DNA of 56,538 bases from Planctomycetota bacterium (GTDB taxonomy: Bacteria; Planctomycetota; Planctomycetia; Planctomycetales; Planctomycetaceae), in the NCBI GenBank assembly GCA_017859815.1, contig JAFMMM010000006.1:1-56538 (forward strand). The letters are read 5' to 3'. The notes below the pieces were generated by a model, which saw only the letters and a program-made list of their open reading frames with translations, did not search any database and was not told the origin of the DNA. A program made the position numbers and the translations under genes. How positions within the stretch are numbered: the first letter of the stretch is position 1; every line of letters starts with the position of its first letter. This document shows, one piece after another, positions 39,346 to 48,756 of this stretch.

Positions 39346-42300
39346 ATGTCTTCCGAACACTCCAGTAGTGAATTCCCTGAATCCGGCGATGCTCCGGAAT
39401 CGGAAGTACCACGATTATCCGCTGCGCTTGAACAACGCTTTAGTTACGCCTGCTGGCAAAACAACATTCCGCTGTTCAAATCTCTGCAGGTCAACAATTC
39501 GACCACACAACCAACTTCGGAGCTGACGATCGATCTCCTTGCCAGCCCGGAATTCCTGCTCCCGCGACAATGGCGAATTGGAACGCTGGAGCCGAGCCAA
39601 AGCTGTTCTGTCGCAGACTGCAACCCGGCCATCAACGGCCACTTCTTCGAATCGCTGAATGAGGCACAGACGTGCACGGTCACCCTGCGACTGCAGGATA
39701 ATGACAGGACACTGGCAACCTGGCACCAGGACGTCCGATTGCTGGCCCGGGATGAGTGGACCGGGGGCAACACCGCACCCGAGACGCTCGCCGCCTTTGT
39801 CAGGCCCAACGGACCCGGGATTTCGGAACTCCTGAATCAGGCGTCCCGCAGACTGAGTGCGGGAGGTCAGGAGAATTCTCTCGAAGGCTATCAGTCCGGC
39901 AATCCTCACCGAGCCTGGCTGCAGGTTGCTGCAATCTGGTCTGCACTGGCCAGTCATCGTCTGACTTATGTCAATCCCCCCGGCAGCTTTGAACGCACGG
40001 GACAGAAAATCCGTTCGGTTGCTGACGTGCTTCAGTGCCGGCAGGCCTGCTGTCTCGATCTCTCCGTTTTGCTGGCTTCCGCCTGCGAGGCCGCTGGTCT
40101 CAACACCACGGTGATTCTGCAGGACAGTCATTGTTTGATTGGCGTCTGGCTGGTTGACCGCTCGTTTGCGAGCCTCCTTGAACATGAACCGGCAGAAATT
40201 CGTAAAGCGGCAACGGCCAACGAACTGCTGCTGCTGGAAACAACACTGCTCACAGGAGAAAGTCCGTCGTCACTGACGCAGGCCCGCGAGGCCGCTGTGG
40301 CAGCATTGCAGTTGCAGCATGATGCTCGCTTCTTCTGTGCGGTTGATTTGCGCCGCGCTCGAATGGCCAGAATTCTTCCCATGGCATCGCCGGTCGAACC
40401 AGGGTTCGACGACAGTCCGGATCCTGCTGTGCCCGAAGAATTCGACCTGCCGCTGCCCCCGCTGCCATCCGCCGATCAACTGCCCTCAGAGTATGCATCC
40501 GATCAGCCCCGGTCTGCAGCCCAGCGTTTGGATCGATGGCAGCGTAAGCTCCTTGACCTGACACTGCGAAACCAGTTGCTGAACTTTCGCCCGGGGCGAA
40601 GTTCGGTCCCGTTCCTGTGCCCGCCGCTGTCCCGCCTGGAAGATCGTCTGGCTTCCGGACGTCGTGTCACGCTGGTTTCACTCTCGGATCACATCCCCGC
40701 AGCCACGCAGGATCACGAGGAGTCTCTGTCAGCAGCGGCCACCAATCCACATTTCATGGCGGATGCTGTCGGTCGAGGTGAACTGCCGGCGGACCTGAGC
40801 CCGGAGGAACTGACTCGTCGCCTGACAGTCCTGTATCGCCGCAGCCGTAATGATCTTGCCGAAGGAGGATCAAACACTCTGTTTTTGGCGATTGGGTTCT
40901 TACGCTGGAAGCAATCAACAACGGACCAGCGTTCTTTCGTTGCCCCTCTGCTGTTGCTTCCCGTCAGCCTCAAGCGACGGAATGCACGATCAGCTTTCCA
41001 GCTAGTCAGTCACGAAGACGATGTTCGAGTCAACTCAACTCTTCTGCAGATGCTCCGTCAGGATTTTTCCGCAGATCTGCAGTACCTCGAATCTGATCTT
41101 CCTCGGGACGATGAGGGGATTGATGTTCAACGACTGCTGCAGCAGATTCGCGCCGATGTTCGCGAATTGCCCGGATTCGAAGTTCTTGAAGATGCCGCAC
41201 TCTCCACATTCTCTTTTGCCAAATATCTGATGTGGAAAGATTTGATGGATCGCAGCGAACTGCTGCGGGAGAACCGCGTCGTCAGGCACCTGGCCGACAA
41301 TCCGGAGATGGCTTTTCTTTCAGGTGGAACAGGCAGCCTGCCCAGACCACACACTCTTGATCAACTTTATTCACCGGATCAGCTGGTCTTTCCACTTCCG
41401 GCCGACTCTTCCCAGTTGGCGGCGATCGCTGCTGCTTCCGAAGGGCAGGACTTCGTCATTATTGGCCCGCCAGGAACAGGGAAGAGCCAGACGATTGCCA
41501 ACATGATTGCGCACTGCCTGGCACACCAAAAAACAGTCCTGTTCGTTGCTGAAAAAACCGCGGCACTGGACGTCGTATACCGCCGGCTCTGCCAACAGGG
41601 GTTGTCTGAACTCTGCATCGAACTTCATTCTTCGCGAGCAGACCGCCGCAGATTTCTCGAGCAAATGCGCAATGCATGGGAATCGGCAAGCCGTTCTCAG
41701 GACGGGCAATGGCAGTCAGTTTGCGGTCGGCTGCATCTGAAACGGGAAGAGCTGAATCGCTACGTCAACGAACTGCATCAGGCAAGAAGCTGCGGCCTGA
41801 GCCTGTTCGAGGCAATGGGATTCAGCGTTCTTCATGCTGACAAAGAACTGCCTCAGCTGAACTGGCCCGACTCAACCGAACTCAACGCCGAACAACTGGA
41901 GCGAATGCGTGGTCTGATGCAGGATCTTGCGGTTGCCGCCCCCGCGGCTCGCAGTCCGCGGATCCCGCAGTTTCTCTGCCACGACGAGTGGACTCCGGAA
42001 TGGGAATCCGGGTTACTCGAAGCCAGCGGAAAAACTGCGAAGGCAGCGCAGCAATTCTCGACAGCTCTTCAGCAGATCGCCACGTCCACAGCACTCCCGG
42101 TCATTGGCACTGTCTTCAGATCCGAATTCGATCCGTTTTGCCAGCTCCTGCGGGACCTGCAACAACGACAGCCGCAGCAGATTGCATTTCTTCTGGAAAC
42201 TGATGCAGATCGTCAGATTCGAGTTCTGCGGAGTTGTCGGGAGCAGGCGCTTGAGATCAGAGCTTTTCAGCAGCGGCTCAGCACCAATTATCCGCCACCA

Positions 42301-44631
42301 AACCTGCTGCGATTACCGGCGCAGCAGCTGGAAGCGGAATACCGAGCAGCCGCTGCCGCCTTCTGGCCACTTTCCGTTTTTCGCCAGTGGCAGACAGCGC
42401 GGAAACTACGGACCTGGACGGATGGCTCGCCCGCCCAGCCGCAACAGGACCTGCCGTTACTGCTGAAAATTTCCACCCTGATCCACCGCGTTGAAGACAG
42501 CGGTGTTCTGAAGTTGACACCGTTTCAGGACACCTGGCTCGAGTCTGCAGACGACTTTGTCGCATGGATTGATGAAACCGTTGCTCTGCACAAGTCTCTG
42601 TCCGGATTTGGAAGTCGTCTTCGGGACGCCTGCCGGTCTCTTGCAGAAATGATGTACCATGAGACCGTGCCGTCACTCCGGGATGCGCTGCAAAGCACCA
42701 TCGACTCCGCGGCCATTTTGAACAGGCTGTTGTCCGCGTGGGAAGGATTGCTGGGCGGGTCGCCGGTTTCCTCTGAATCTGCCGCACTGTCTGACCAGGT
42801 CATCGATGCGGCGGAAACAATGACAAGGCACCGCGATCAACTGCGAGACTGGACCGCGTGGAATGCCGTCTCACAGCCGGCTGCGCGACTGGGTCTTGCC
42901 CCTCTCAGCGACGCGCTCCTGAACGGTGACCTGACTGTGGACGAGGCAGTGTCAGGGTTTGATCTGGCGTGGATCCGTTGGTGGCTTCCAAAGGAAATCA
43001 GCCGAAATGCTCTGTTGTGCAGCTTTCGGGGCTTCACACATGAGGAAGCAGTGTCTGAGTTTCGCCGGCTGGATGATGCAGTGCGGAAGGCGGCAGTTCC
43101 ACATATTCTCTCTGCCGGACGAAAGAAAATCCCGCAGATCAGCGAAGTGCCTCGCAGATCTGAACTGGGACTATTGAGGCATCAGATGCAACTGCAGCGG
43201 CCCAGTAAATCGATCCGGACAGTGATCGAATCAATGCCTGAATACTTCACTCAGCTGGCGCCGTGTCTGCTGATGTCGCCACTGTCGGTGTCTCAGTATC
43301 TGCCGGCAGACCATACCGGATTCGACGTCGTTATCCTTGACGAAGCCTCGCAGATTACGACCTGGGATGCCATTGGCGCGATTGCCCGCGGTAAGCAAAC
43401 CGTCGTTGTAGGGGACCCCAAACAGCTGCCGCCAACGAACTTCTTTGGCCGAAATGAAAGTGACGAAGAAAGTCACGAACTTGACTACTTTGAGCAGGAT
43501 CTGGAGAGCATTCTTGATGAGGCTCAGGCCGCGGGACTACCGGCGATTCAGCTCAGCTGGCATTACCGCAGCCGTCATGAATCGCTGATTGCGTTTTCCA
43601 ACCGCCACTACTACGAAAATCAGCTGCTGACTTTCCCTTCGGCTGTCACAGCCGACAGCGCCGTTGCCCTGAACTTCGTGGAAGATGGAGTTTTTGATCG
43701 CGGGAAATCGCGGACCAATCGCCGCGAAGCCGAAGCTGTTTCACAATACTGCACGGAAAGGCTGCTGGCGATGCTGCTGCTGCCCGAACCGCAGCGGCTG
43801 AGCATTGGCGTGATTACATTCAACGTGCAACAGCAAACACTGATCGAGGACCTGATGGATGCCGCACGCCGTAGTCATCCGGAAATTGAATGGTTTTTTG
43901 ATGAAGCACGGGAAGAGCCATTCGTGGTCAAGAATCTCGAAAATGTTCAGGGGGATGAAAGAGACTGCATTCTGTTTTCCATTACTTACGGCCCGGATTC
44001 GTCTGCGCGACTCACCCGGAATTTCGGCCCACTGAATCGGCAGGGAGGTCAGCGCAGACTCAATGTCGCTGTCACCCGCGCCCGCAGAGAACTGCGAGTC
44101 TTCTCCTCCTTCAAAGCGGAGCAGTTAAGCACCGACGGTATTCGACACATCGGAGTCAGTCATCTGAAGAATTTTCTCGACTATGCGGAACGCGGAGTCG
44201 CGGCACTTCCGGAATCCTCTGTCTCAGAATCTGACGTGACCGAATCTTCTCTGGAAACTGCCGTGGCCAGGGCGTTGGAAGAACGCGGCTGGATACTACG
44301 TCGCAGCGTGGGTGTTTCACGCTTCCGCATTGGCATTGGCGTCGTCCACCCGCATGATCACAAGCGGTTTCTGGCCGGCATCGAGTGTGATGGAACAGTC
44401 TACCGCGATGCCGCAGCGGCGAGGGATCGGGATCGGATTCGCGGCGAAGTCCTGCATGGACTCGGCTGGCAGGTATTGCGAATTTGGTCTCCGGACTGGT
44501 GGTATTCTCCGGAGCAGGAGGCGAATCGTCTGCACGAAGAACTGAACGGGCTGTTGGCAGCCAACGCGGAATCACCCACTAACGACGCATCTGCAGAGAC
44601 CGACGCGTCGCCCAAGACTGCGAATTCCTGA
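39346..44631 (+). CDS. DUF4011/SF1-helicase/PD-(D/E)xK nuclease protein (Hhe-like candidate defence protein)
   Basis: The protein has 1761 residues. Residues 226-271 form a transglutaminase-like segment with Cys235/Cys236 and His262. The DUF4011 entry motif RLDRWQRKLLDLTLRNQLLNFR is at 394-415. The AAA_11 core has Walker A GPPGTGKS (707-714) and the segment VAEKTAALDVVYRRL. The second helicase half has Walker B VVILDEASQ (1328-1336), GDPKQLPPTNFF (near 1357), the SWHYRSRHESLI motif (near 1405), NVQGDERD (near 1532) and RRLNVAVTRARREL (1570 on). The C-terminus (about 1636-1745) is a Vsr/MTES_1575-type nuclease with IECDG (1679-1683) and RDRDRIR. As I recall, published defence screens named DUF4011-helicase-Vsr proteins Hhe. 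Defence is inferred by this match. Confidence 0.88.
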   Translation: MSSEHSSSEFPESGDAPESEVPRLSAALEQRFSYACWQNNIPLFKSLQVNNSTTQPTSELTIDLLASPEFLLPRQWRIGTLEPSQSCSVADCNPAINGHFFESLNEAQTCTVTLRLQDNDRTLATWHQDVRLLARDEWTGGNTAPETLAAFVRPNGPGISELLNQASRRLSAGGQENSLEGYQSGNPHRAWLQVAAIWSALASHRLTYVNPPGSFERTGQKIRSVADVLQCRQACCLDLSVLLASACEAAGLNTTVILQDSHCLIGVWLVDRSFASLLEHEPAEIRKAATANELLLLETTLLTGESPSSLTQAREAAVAALQLQHDARFFCAVDLRRARMARILPMASPVEPGFDDSPDPAVPEEFDLPLPPLPSADQLPSEYASDQPRSAAQRLDRWQRKLLDLTLRNQLLNFRPGRSSVPFLCPPLSRLEDRLASGRRVTLVSLSDHIPAATQDHEESLSAAATNPHFMADAVGRGELPADLSPEELTRRLTVLYRRSRNDLAEGGSNTLFLAIGFLRWKQSTTDQRSFVAPLLLLPVSLKRRNARSAFQLVSHEDDVRVNSTLLQMLRQDFSADLQYLESDLPRDDEGIDVQRLLQQIRADVRELPGFEVLEDAALSTFSFAKYLMWKDLMDRSELLRENRVVRHLADNPEMAFLSGGTGSLPRPHTLDQLYSPDQLVFPLPADSSQLAAIAAASEGQDFVIIGPPGTGKSQTIANMIAHCLAHQKTVLFVAEKTAALDVVYRRLCQQGLSELCIELHSSRADRRRFLEQMRNAWESASRSQDGQWQSVCGRLHLKREELNRYVNELHQARSCGLSLFEAMGFSVLHADKELPQLNWPDSTELNAEQLERMRGLMQDLAVAAPAARSPRIPQFLCHDEWTPEWESGLLEASGKTAKAAQQFSTALQQIATSTALPVIGTVFRSEFDPFCQLLRDLQQRQPQQIAFLLETDADRQIRVLRSCREQALEIRAFQQRLSTNYPPPNLLRLPAQQLEAEYRAAAAAFWPLSVFRQWQTARKLRTWTDGSPAQPQQDLPLLLKISTLIHRVEDSGVLKLTPFQDTWLESADDFVAWIDETVALHKSLSGFGSRLRDACRSLAEMMYHETVPSLRDALQSTIDSAAILNRLLSAWEGLLGGSPVSSESAALSDQVIDAAETMTRHRDQLRDWTAWNAVSQPAARLGLAPLSDALLNGDLTVDEAVSGFDLAWIRWWLPKEISRNALLCSFRGFTHEEAVSEFRRLDDAVRKAAVPHILSAGRKKIPQISEVPRRSELGLLRHQMQLQRPSKSIRTVIESMPEYFTQLAPCLLMSPLSVSQYLPADHTGFDVVILDEASQITTWDAIGAIARGKQTVVVGDPKQLPPTNFFGRNESDEESHELDYFEQDLESILDEAQAAGLPAIQLSWHYRSRHESLIAFSNRHYYENQLLTFPSAVTADSAVALNFVEDGVFDRGKSRTNRREAEAVSQYCTERLLAMLLLPEPQRLSIGVITFNVQQQTLIEDLMDAARRSHPEIEWFFDEAREEPFVVKNLENVQGDERDCILFSITYGPDSSARLTRNFGPLNRQGGQRRLNVAVTRARRELRVFSSFKAEQLSTDGIRHIGVSHLKNFLDYAERGVAALPESSVSESDVTESSLETAVARALEERGWILRRSVGVSRFRIGIGVVHPHDHKRFLAGIECDGTVYRDAAAARDRDRIRGEVLHGLGWQVLRIWSPDWWYSPEQEANRLHEELNGLLAANAESPTNDASAETDASPKTANS

Positions 44632-46130: not shown

Positions 46131-46323
46131 CATCCCAATTACACAGCGTTTTGAAGTCACAGTGTGTTTGGGCCGTTGGATTTACATTTGACTGCCAGCC
46201 TGAGACAGTTTGCAATGTAAACGAACCCGGTTCTGTCAGCTCTATCGCCACACACCGTGCAGGCCTGTCAATCAGTTCGTGGTCAATGCCTGCCTGGTCC
46301 TTCAGTCTGAGTCAGAGACAACC

Positions 46324-48756
46324 ATGTGGATCATTCGTCCTGCCAGTCTGGTGATTGGTGATCAGCGCTGGATCATTCCTGCCGCTGCCATTGCCATGAC
46401 CGGATTGCTGCTGACACTGTGGCTGAATCGCCATCGTCTGCAGGTTCGTTCCCAGCTGATCGGCACATGCCTGCGATTAACCGCCTGGCTGCTGCTCTGC
46501 GTCTGTCTGCTGAATCCTCTCTGGAGTGGTTCACGACCTCGTTCCGGAGCCAATGTGCTGGCGGTTGTTGCGGACGTCAGTCGCAGCCATCTGATCGGCG
46601 TTCAGGACGCCACCTCAACACGCGCGGATGAACTGAAAGCAACCCTCGAACGGGGCGAACGAACAGAGCCCGCGGGCTGGCTGACCGAACTCGACCAGGA
46701 CTTCGAACTTCGCCGCTACACGATTGCCGACCGTCTGTTGCAGTTGGAACAGCTTTCAGACGTCACATTCGACGGTGCGGCCTCGTCTCTTGGAACAGCA
46801 TTGCAGAGTCTGCAGCAGCGTTATCAGGGACAACCTCTGGCGGGCATTGTCCTGCTCACCGACGGGAACTCAACAGACGCTGTCCCGGACCCCGATATCC
46901 TCCGCCAACTGCCACCGATCCACGTGGTTGTGCCCGGCGAGAACAACCAGCTGCCAGACATTTCCGTTGGCGAAATCAGCACTTCGCAGTCAGCATTTGA
47001 TGATGCCCCCCTGACCGTGCTCGTCACTCCGCACACAGAGGGTCAGGTCAACGGTCGCATTTCAGTCACCCTGGAAGACGCATCCGGCGTGCCGCTCGAG
47101 ACTCAAATACGCGCTGCAGCAGAAACGGAACCCATTCGCTTCACACATCGACCGACAGAGCGGGGGACTGTCTTTTATCGAGTCCGCACTGCGCTGTTGA
47201 ATGAGTCGGACGGCACCCCTGTCGAGGAAGCGACGGAGATCAACAACAGCCGTCTGATCAGTGTCGATCGCGGCTCAGAGCCTCGACGAATCCTCTACGT
47301 CTCCGGTCGGCCAAACTGGGACTTCAAATTCCTGCGTCGTGCCGTGCAGACCGATACGCAGCTGGACCTCGTTGCTCTCATCCGCATTGCTCGCAAGGAA
47401 GCCCGCTTTGACTTCCGCGGACGCGAGGGAGAGTCTGCGAACTCACTGTTTCGGGGCTTTGATCGTGCCGACCCGGATACGGTAGAAGAATACGACGAGG
47501 CGGTGATGGTGCGTCTGAACACAAAGGACAGCGACGAACTCTCCGGTGGTTTCCCGGAAACTGCACAAGAGCTGTTCCGATACGATGCACTGGTGATTGA
47601 TGATGTGGAAGCTGACTTTTTCACAGCCGACCAACACTCTCTGATTCACGATTTTGTGTCCCGCCGGGGTGGCGGTTTTCTGATGCTGGGTGGTCAGGAG
47701 TCATTCCGCCAGGGGAATTTCGATCGCACACAGATCGGTGAACTGCTGCCGGTCGATCTGAGTCGCCCTGCCGACTTTCCTGATACTCCCCTGCGAATCA
47801 CACTCACCCGCGATGGCTGGCTTCAGCCGTGGGTCAGGCTGCGGGACGATGAACAACTGGAAGAGGAGCGACTGGCAGAGATGCCGGAATTTCTCACCCT
47901 CAATCCGACCGGGTACGTGCGTCCGGGTGCCGTTGTGATGTCACATGTTGAAGACGCCACCGGAACCAGGTGGCCCGCCCTGGTGACCCAGCGATTCGGG
48001 CGAGGCCGGACAGGTGCACTCTGTGTCGGTGACTTCTGGAGATGGCGGCTTCGTCAGGGCTTGAACGAGTACCAGGCCGCAATGGAGAGTCCGTTGCCGC
48101 TGGAGACCAGTGTCAGTCCCACGGCCGAATCTGCGGACGATGATTTGAGCGATCATGCACGAGCCAGCCGGCAGATGATTCGTTGGCTGGTTGCCGACGT
48201 TCCCCGACGCCTGAACGTCACGGTTCGCGAGGACAGTGGAATCGGCACGGGGGCGATGCTGCTGACAGCCGAAGTCCTGAGCAGTGTTTTCGAACCCAGC
48301 GACAATGCCGAGGTGGACTTTGTCGTTACTTCGCCATCAGGCGAACAACTGGAACTCAGCGGCACTCCTTCGGAGACATCCAGCGGCGTCTGGGAGGCCC
48401 CGTTGACAGCGCTTGAAGCAGGCCAGTGGTCCGTCGCCGTCAAGGCCACCACCGGCGAAGGCGACGAAGCAGAAATTCTTAATGCGGAGTCAGGCTGGGC
48501 CAGCCAGCCCGACCAGGAGGAAATGGCTCGGGCTTCCGTTAATCGCCCTTTCCTTGAAGAGTTAACCTCGGCCACCGGGGGCCGCATCTGGACCACCAGT
48601 GAAGTGGATGAACTGACCGATTTTATTCCGGGAGAAGCGGTGCCACTGTCCGAAGTCTGGTCGTGGCCAATCTGGAATACATGGGGAGTCTTCCTGCTTG
48701 CTGTCGGGCTGCTCTCCGCAGACTGGACCCTGCGTCGACGAGGAGGAATGCCATGA
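46324..48756 (+). CDS. Membrane protein with vWA/glutamine-amidotransferase-like core
   Basis: From the ATG at 46324 the protein has 810 residues. Two N-terminal helices (about 17-32 and 45-66) are followed by a vWA-like segment (ANVLAVVADVSRSHLIGVQD; GIVLLTDGNSTDAVPD), an Ig-like beta region, RRILYVSGRPNWDFKFLRRAV, and a GATase1-like domain (DALVIDDVEADFFTADQHSLIHDFVSRRGGGFLMLGGQESF). Another beta domain and one C-terminal helix (WNTWGVFLLAVGLL) follow. In planctomycetes, as recalled, such proteins sit with MoxR/BatA genes. No MoxR gene is in this window. The vWA MIDAS pattern (DxSxS) is incomplete, so ion binding is uncertain. The stop overlaps the next start by ATGA. Confidence 0.75.
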   Translation: MWIIRPASLVIGDQRWIIPAAAIAMTGLLLTLWLNRHRLQVRSQLIGTCLRLTAWLLLCVCLLNPLWSGSRPRSGANVLAVVADVSRSHLIGVQDATSTRADELKATLERGERTEPAGWLTELDQDFELRRYTIADRLLQLEQLSDVTFDGAASSLGTALQSLQQRYQGQPLAGIVLLTDGNSTDAVPDPDILRQLPPIHVVVPGENNQLPDISVGEISTSQSAFDDAPLTVLVTPHTEGQVNGRISVTLEDASGVPLETQIRAAAETEPIRFTHRPTERGTVFYRVRTALLNESDGTPVEEATEINNSRLISVDRGSEPRRILYVSGRPNWDFKFLRRAVQTDTQLDLVALIRIARKEARFDFRGREGESANSLFRGFDRADPDTVEEYDEAVMVRLNTKDSDELSGGFPETAQELFRYDALVIDDVEADFFTADQHSLIHDFVSRRGGGFLMLGGQESFRQGNFDRTQIGELLPVDLSRPADFPDTPLRITLTRDGWLQPWVRLRDDEQLEEERLAEMPEFLTLNPTGYVRPGAVVMSHVEDATGTRWPALVTQRFGRGRTGALCVGDFWRWRLRQGLNEYQAAMESPLPLETSVSPTAESADDDLSDHARASRQMIRWLVADVPRRLNVTVREDSGIGTGAMLLTAEVLSSVFEPSDNAEVDFVVTSPSGEQLELSGTPSETSSGVWEAPLTALEAGQWSVAVKATTGEGDEAEILNAESGWASQPDQEEMARASVNRPFLEELTSATGGRIWTTSEVDELTDFIPGEAVPLSEVWSWPIWNTWGVFLLAVGLLSADWTLRRRGGMP

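What the first reader, a model, noticed from the sequence alone, without database searches (positions are those of the whole stretch)
39346..44631. Large single-gene helicase-nuclease resembling the Hhe defence family
The sequence shows DUF4011 (394-415), a split SF1 helicase (Walker A 707-714, Walker B 1328-1336, RRLNVAVTRARR at 1570) and a C-terminal Vsr/MTES_1575-type nuclease with IECDG and RDRDRIR (1679-1699). Established: SF1 motor and PD-(D/E)xK families, and published defence screens that named DUF4011-helicase-Vsr proteins. Inference: this gene protects against phage. It stands alone between TolC and a sulfatase with no integrase, so it is not on an obvious island.
Basis: partly seen in the sequence, partly recalled or inferred. 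Interest (0 to 1): 0.7.

Follow-up and report, generated by a model that had tools for sequence, protein, structure and literature searches.

The report
Nuclease-dead ProA-family defence helicase
The gene belongs to ProA, a recently named family of large single-gene anti-phage helicase proteins, but in this bacterium and two sister species its DNA-cutting domain has lost two active-site residues that relatives keep, so it probably no longer cuts DNA and may work differently.

Summary
The gene is real: window 39346-44631 (+), 1761 aa, with DUF4011, a complete split SF1 motor and a C-terminal Vsr-like nuclease fold. It is not an Hhe. It passes the curated NCBIfam cut-off for anti-phage ProA (1876 bits, cut-off 1500) and fails the one for Hhe (749, cut-off 2000). 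The region before DUF4011 is a beta-sandwich plus a transglutaminase-like domain whose Cys-His-Asp/Glu residues are kept in about 95% of 74 relatives.

First, the first catalytic Asp of the nuclease (column 1663) is D in 72 of 74 relatives but Gly here and Ser in both sister species; the His at 1687 is Arg in all three, and the DUF3320 tail is missing. The nuclease is probably catalytically dead, although its fold is conserved. Second, in 15 of 75 ProA loci elsewhere an Mre11/SbcD-like gene, usually with an SbcC/Rad50-like partner, lies within 10 kb; the window's genome has no such gene.

In this genus the gene is inherited vertically, in an ordinary context (TolC, sulfatase). Family-level defence function is likely, but no phenotype was tested for this lineage. 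The ProA paper was not in the library.

The parts
39346..44631 (+). ProA-family protein, 1761 aa
   Evidence: NF058533 1876.4 bits (cut-off 1500), residues 33-1754 on model positions 1-1724 of 1903
39400..39744 (+). N-terminal beta-sandwich, about residues 19-133
   Evidence: AlphaFold2 model of 1-395, mean pLDDT 92; PDB matches to Ig-like/transglutaminase beta-barrel domains, Z about 10
39766..40380 (+). Transglutaminase/cysteine-protease-like domain, about residues 141-345; C236, H262, E281
   Evidence: Sub-threshold Transglut_core 217-257; Foldseek 3kd4 and 3isr putative cysteine proteases; C 70/74, H 70/74, D/E 72/74
40546..41055 (+). DUF4011, residues 401-570
   Evidence: PF13195 E 9e-45
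41464..41487 (+). Walker A GPPGTGKS, residues 707-714
   Evidence: Invariant in 74 of 74
41743..43185 (+). Variable insert splitting the SF1 motor, about residues 800-1280
   Evidence: Lowest identity of any region, 0.35-0.70 in close pairs; Pfam AAA hits lie only on either side
43186..44145 (+). Second half of SF1 motor (AAA_11 end and AAA_12), DEASQ 1332-1336, motif VI VAVTRARR
   Evidence: PF13086/PF13087; invariant motif residues
44254..44544 (+). Vsr/MTES_1575-like nuclease fold, residues 1637-1733, predicted inactive (D1663 to G, H1687 to R)
   Evidence: PF18741 E 3e-27; model matches I-Bth0305I Z 12.3 and Vsr 1cw0 Z 10.9 over 102 residues; substitutions
44332..44334 (+). Codon 1663: Gly where 72 of 74 relatives have the first catalytic Asp

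Best explanation
This is a ProA-family anti-phage type protein. An UPF1/IGHMBP2-like SF1 motor, split by a long variable insert and preceded by DUF4011 and a transglutaminase-like domain, probably loads on DNA ends or single-stranded DNA such as phage replication intermediates and uses ATP to move. In most relatives the C-terminal Vsr-like domain would then cut. In this three-species planctomycete lineage that domain has lost its first metal-binding Asp and a conserved His, and the DUF3320 tail is gone, so it most likely acts as a non-cutting DNA-binding module. The effect would then come from the motor itself (stripping or blocking phage DNA), from the cysteine-enzyme-like N-terminal domain, or from a separate nuclease; the motor is the likeliest of the three. 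Shown: architecture, family membership, substitutions shared by three species, conserved motor and triad residues. Inferred: DNA sensing, loss of cutting, and defence as the purpose.
For: Membership: 1876 bits against a cut-off of 1500 for NF058533. Motor intact: all motif residues invariant in 74 members. Nuclease loss: D1663 is G/S/S and H1687 is R/R/R in three separately assembled species, a single change on the tree; the model puts 1663 at the start of the second core strand, the usual place of the PD Asp, with E1680 and D1682 at the third, and the profile aligns that column to the D of VDF in endonuclease-like 3hrl. Fold retained: nuclease domain 68% identical between the two full-length sister proteins at 62% overall, similar to pairs that keep the Asp. 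DNA-end link at family level: SbcD/Mre11-like gene in 15 of 75 loci, in several arrangements and with different SbcC types. Some loci neighbour CRISPR I-G, a Cas1c, type I RM, PifA, PD-Lambda-3 or RT genes.
Against: No phage phenotype is known for this lineage, and the ProA publication could not be read. The PADLOC neighbour control was not clean: control windows also gave hits such as Csx1, RtcR and mad3. In this genus the gene sits in an ordinary chromosomal context, its divergence tracks a neighbouring gene as expected for vertical inheritance, and there is no SbcD-like partner of this type in the own genome. Residual activity with other acidic residues (E1680, D1682) is possible.
Confidence: 0.55

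Rival explanations
1. Ordinary active ProA: the C-terminal domain still cuts DNA using the remaining acidic residues, and the gene is a standard anti-phage helicase-nuclease.
For: E1680, D1682, R1695 and the aromatic core are kept and the domain is not decaying.
Against: The first Asp is D in 72 of 74 relatives and absent in exactly this clade, together with the His change.
Confidence: 0.15
2. Domesticated helper: in this lineage the gene has left defence and serves DNA repair or another housekeeping role as a non-cutting motor.
For: Stable site TolC-ProA-sulfatase in the lineage, loss of cutting residues and tail, vertical divergence and a ProA/neighbour distance ratio of 1.02 in this clade against 0.59-0.85 in genus mates that keep the Asp.
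Against: The gene is missing from several genomes of the genus, so it is not essential. The neighbouring gene also evolves faster in this lineage, so the rate excess is small. Some planctomycete copies are broken, as expected of an accessory gene.
Confidence: 0.2
3. The transglutaminase-like N-terminal domain is the effector: on DNA sensing it cleaves or cross-links a protein, while the nuclease fold only helps to bind DNA.
For: Cys-His-Asp/Glu kept in about 95% of 74 members from many phyla; confident model with Foldseek matches to putative cysteine proteases.
Against: No substrate is known. Stand-alone planctomycete relatives of this domain appear to be secreted proteins of unknown role. A few family members lack the triad.
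Confidence: 0.15

Closest known systems
ProA (NCBIfam NF058533, anti-phage protein ProA; PADLOC PDC-S37)
   Same: Near full-length match above the curated cut-off; best PADLOC model, 1116 bits
   Different: Lacks the last 180 or so model positions (DUF3320), and lacks the nuclease Asp1663 and His1687 found in most members
Hhe (NF042953; PADLOC Hhe)
   Same: DUF4011, split SF1 motor and Vsr-like nuclease shared
   Different: 749 bits against a cut-off of 2000; the matched parts are the DUF4011-motor region and the C-terminal half only
Vsr mismatch endonuclease / I-Bth0305I / RAP domains
   Same: Fold of the C-terminal domain: Z 10.9 to Vsr 1cw0, 12.3 to I-Bth0305I, about 10-12 to RAP-domain and mitoribosomal proteins
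   Different: A domain of a large motor protein; in this lineage the catalytic residues are gone (RAP domains, from general knowledge, also use this fold without acting as restriction-type nucleases)
Hachiman HamAB and Hna
   Same: Defence by a helicase activity coupled to a nuclease (PMC12278908, PMC13381803)
   Different: Different helicase and nuclease families; similarity is in working principle only, not tested here

Membership tests
ProA (NF058533) | Whole-protein score above the curated cut-off of 1500 bits | tested here: met
   1876.4 bits, residues 33-1754
ProA (NF058533) | Full model length including the C-terminal DUF3320 part (not part of the curated definition) | tested here: not met
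   Match ends at model position 1724 of 1903; tail absent here but also missing in 17 of 74 rows, a few of them cut by contig ends
ProA (NF058533) | Intact PD-(D/E)xK/Vsr-like active site as in other members (not part of the curated definition) | tested here: not met
   D1663 to G, H1687 to R
ProA (NF058533) | Anti-phage activity | not testable with these tools
   Needs phage challenge
Hhe (NF042953) | Score above curated cut-off of 2000 bits | tested here: not met
   748.7 bits; also below the cut-off in the genome search
SF1 helicase (UPF1/IGHMBP2-like) | Walker A, DExx box, motifs III-VI | tested here: met
Transglutaminase-like superfamily | Pfam Transglut_core above the gathering score | tested here: not met
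   17.0 bits, gathering score 23
Transglutaminase-like superfamily | Fold and conserved Cys-His-Asp | tested here: inconclusive
   Triad columns conserved and Foldseek hits to putative cysteine proteases, but VIA matches are dominated by the beta-sandwich
Vsr-like/MTES_1575 nuclease fold | PF18741 above the cut-off and alpha-beta-beta-beta-alpha-beta core | tested here: met
   95 bits, cut-off 38.2; model and Z values

The most novel reading that the evidence does not exclude
A branch of the ProA defence family has swapped effectors: the cutting domain was inactivated and kept as a DNA-binding module, and the conserved cysteine-enzyme domain at the N-terminus, switched by the DNA motor, carries out defence by acting on proteins.
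Probability: 0.15. Interest if true: 0.7.

Novelty: new variant of a known kind. Interest (0 to 1): 0.42.

Why it matters
It gives a natural experiment: three species keep a ProA whose nuclease active site is lost while the motor and the cysteine-enzyme-like residues stay. Comparing it with its closest relatives that keep the Asp (G009, G003 and G016, about 50% identical to it) would show whether ProA defence needs DNA cutting at all. The repeated pairing of ProA with Mre11-Rad50-like genes elsewhere points to DNA ends as the likely trigger or substrate, and I found no report of it in the papers that could be searched.

Tried and rejected
Hhe membership: rejected by the curated cut-off. Literature on ProA or PDC-S37: none found in the library; the DefensePredictor paper does not mention it. 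Defence-island enrichment by PADLOC over 318 neighbour ORFs: suggestive, but the control of 98 ORFs was not clean and only the top 25 families are listed, so no enrichment value is claimed. Strong lineage-specific acceleration of ProA, suggested by a long stem branch: largely explained by the lineage as a whole, since a neighbouring gene is faster there too. SbcD-like partner elsewhere in the own genome: none at E 1e-6. Sequencing error as the cause of the Asp loss: rejected, three species share it. Base composition: GC 0.54-0.59 across the gene, no island signal.

Full report
What is there. The ORF at 39346-44631 (+) encodes 1761 aa with no internal stop and is single-copy in a 5.6 Mb planctomycete-type draft genome (the lineage is inferred from neighbours and relatives). 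Pfam gives DUF4011 (401-570), two halves of an SF1 helicase and REase_MTES_1575 (1637-1733). The closest solved motors are IGHMBP2/SMUBP-2, Sen1 and UPF1.

Family. NCBIfam places it in anti-phage ProA (NF058533, 1876 bits, cut-off 1500) and well under the cut-off for Hhe (749 against 2000). PADLOC agrees: PDC-S37 1116 bits, Hhe 513. The ProA publication was not found in the library, so what was shown experimentally for ProA is unknown to me.

N-terminal part. A confident model of residues 1-395 (mean pLDDT 92) shows a beta-sandwich followed by a transglutaminase/cysteine-protease-like domain. Pfam Transglut_core is below its threshold, but Foldseek finds putative cysteine proteases 3kd4 and 3isr as well as transglutaminases. 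C236 is kept in 70 of 74, H262 in 70 of 74 and D/E281 in 72 of 74 members. Similar domains occur in stand-alone proteins of related planctomycetes that look secreted.

C-terminal part. A model of 1590-1748 (mean pLDDT 83) has the PD-(D/E)xK core and aligns with I-Bth0305I (Z 12.3), endonuclease-like 3hrl (11.5) and Vsr 1cw0 (10.9, 102 residues, 2.6 A). Residue 1663 opens the second core strand, and E1680/D1682 lie at the third. The profile alignment puts column 1663 on the Asp of VDF in 3hrl. In 74 members this column is D in 72, G in the window and S in its sister; the half-gene of a third species also has S. Column 1687, H in 54 of 74, is R in all three. From general knowledge of Vsr, these columns correspond to its metal-binding Asp51 and to His69; that equivalence was not computed residue by residue here. 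The change maps to one event on a tree built without the nuclease columns. The domain is not decaying: 68% identical between the window and G013 against 62% overall. The DUF3320 tail seen in relatives is absent here; this loss has happened repeatedly in the family (up to 13 changes).

Genomic context. In this lineage the gene lies between a TolC-like gene and a sulfatase. The same arrangement occurs in G013, and the parts held for G002, which are on separate contigs, fit it. Genus mates G003, G009 and G016 share a second site, and G010 and G007 have others. Distances of ProA and of the GATase1-like gene at 46210-48756 run in parallel, so the gene is vertically inherited in this genus; the distance ratio is somewhat higher in the window clade (1.02 against 0.59-0.85). 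Eight of the 18 genus genomes held carry it by the full-length or split matches. In a more distant relative (G092) two near-identical integrase-core ORFs bracket the ProA copy.

Partners elsewhere. In 75 loci from many phyla, an SbcD/Mre11-like gene occurs within 10 kb in 15, mostly with an SbcC/Rad50-like gene, on either side and with at least two SbcC types. No such gene was found in 144 kb of control sequence, in the 13 planctomycete regions or in the window. The probability of 15 or more by chance is about 1e-16 if such genes number three per 5 Mb; that rate is an assumption, some loci are closely related, and the profile was built from 12 of the hits, so this is a rough guide. The own genome has no SbcD of this type at E 1e-6. 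PADLOC hits next to some loci include CRISPR I-G, a Cas1c, type I RM, PifA, PD-Lambda-3 and RT genes, but the control was not clean.

Mechanism. The parts suggest ATP-driven sensing of DNA ends or single strands. Defence by coupled helicase and nuclease activities is established for Hachiman and Hna (PMC12278908, PMC13381803), which are different families. In this lineage cutting is probably lost, so the output is the motor, the cysteine-enzyme-like domain or an outside nuclease. I rank the motor first, but the evidence does not decide.

Verdict. The gene and architecture are confirmed, the family is corrected to ProA, and defence is plausible but untested. The new points are a conserved, probably nuclease-dead branch and a family-level link to Mre11-Rad50-like genes.

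Noticed in passing
L118:3411-4472 and L118:13572-14633 (genome G092): Two near-identical integrase-core (rve) ORFs in the same orientation bracket the ProA copy, like a composite transposon.
   Followed up: partly
L119 (G084) and L123 (G078): ProA copies with an in-frame stop or split over frames: decay or assembly errors in planctomycete relatives.
   Followed up: partly
L032-L036, L049, L051, L052, L084, L037, L102: ProA next to SbcD/SbcC-like pairs of at least two subfamilies, in both gene orders; a possible three-gene system not found in the searched papers.
   Followed up: partly
L141-L149: Stand-alone planctomycete proteins, several with apparent signal peptides, carry a transglutaminase-like domain related to the ProA N-terminus, with conserved Cys and His.
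   Followed up: partly
L120:12780-15737: Next to the ProA copy of G035 lies an RNase_H_2 plus SF1 helicase protein; the MkoA (Mokosh) PADLOC hit in that set may be this one.
   Followed up: no
PMC10250203: A DUF4011 gene is a core flank of defence hotspot cDHS1 in all P. aeruginosa isolates; whether it is ProA or Hhe was not tested.
   Followed up: no
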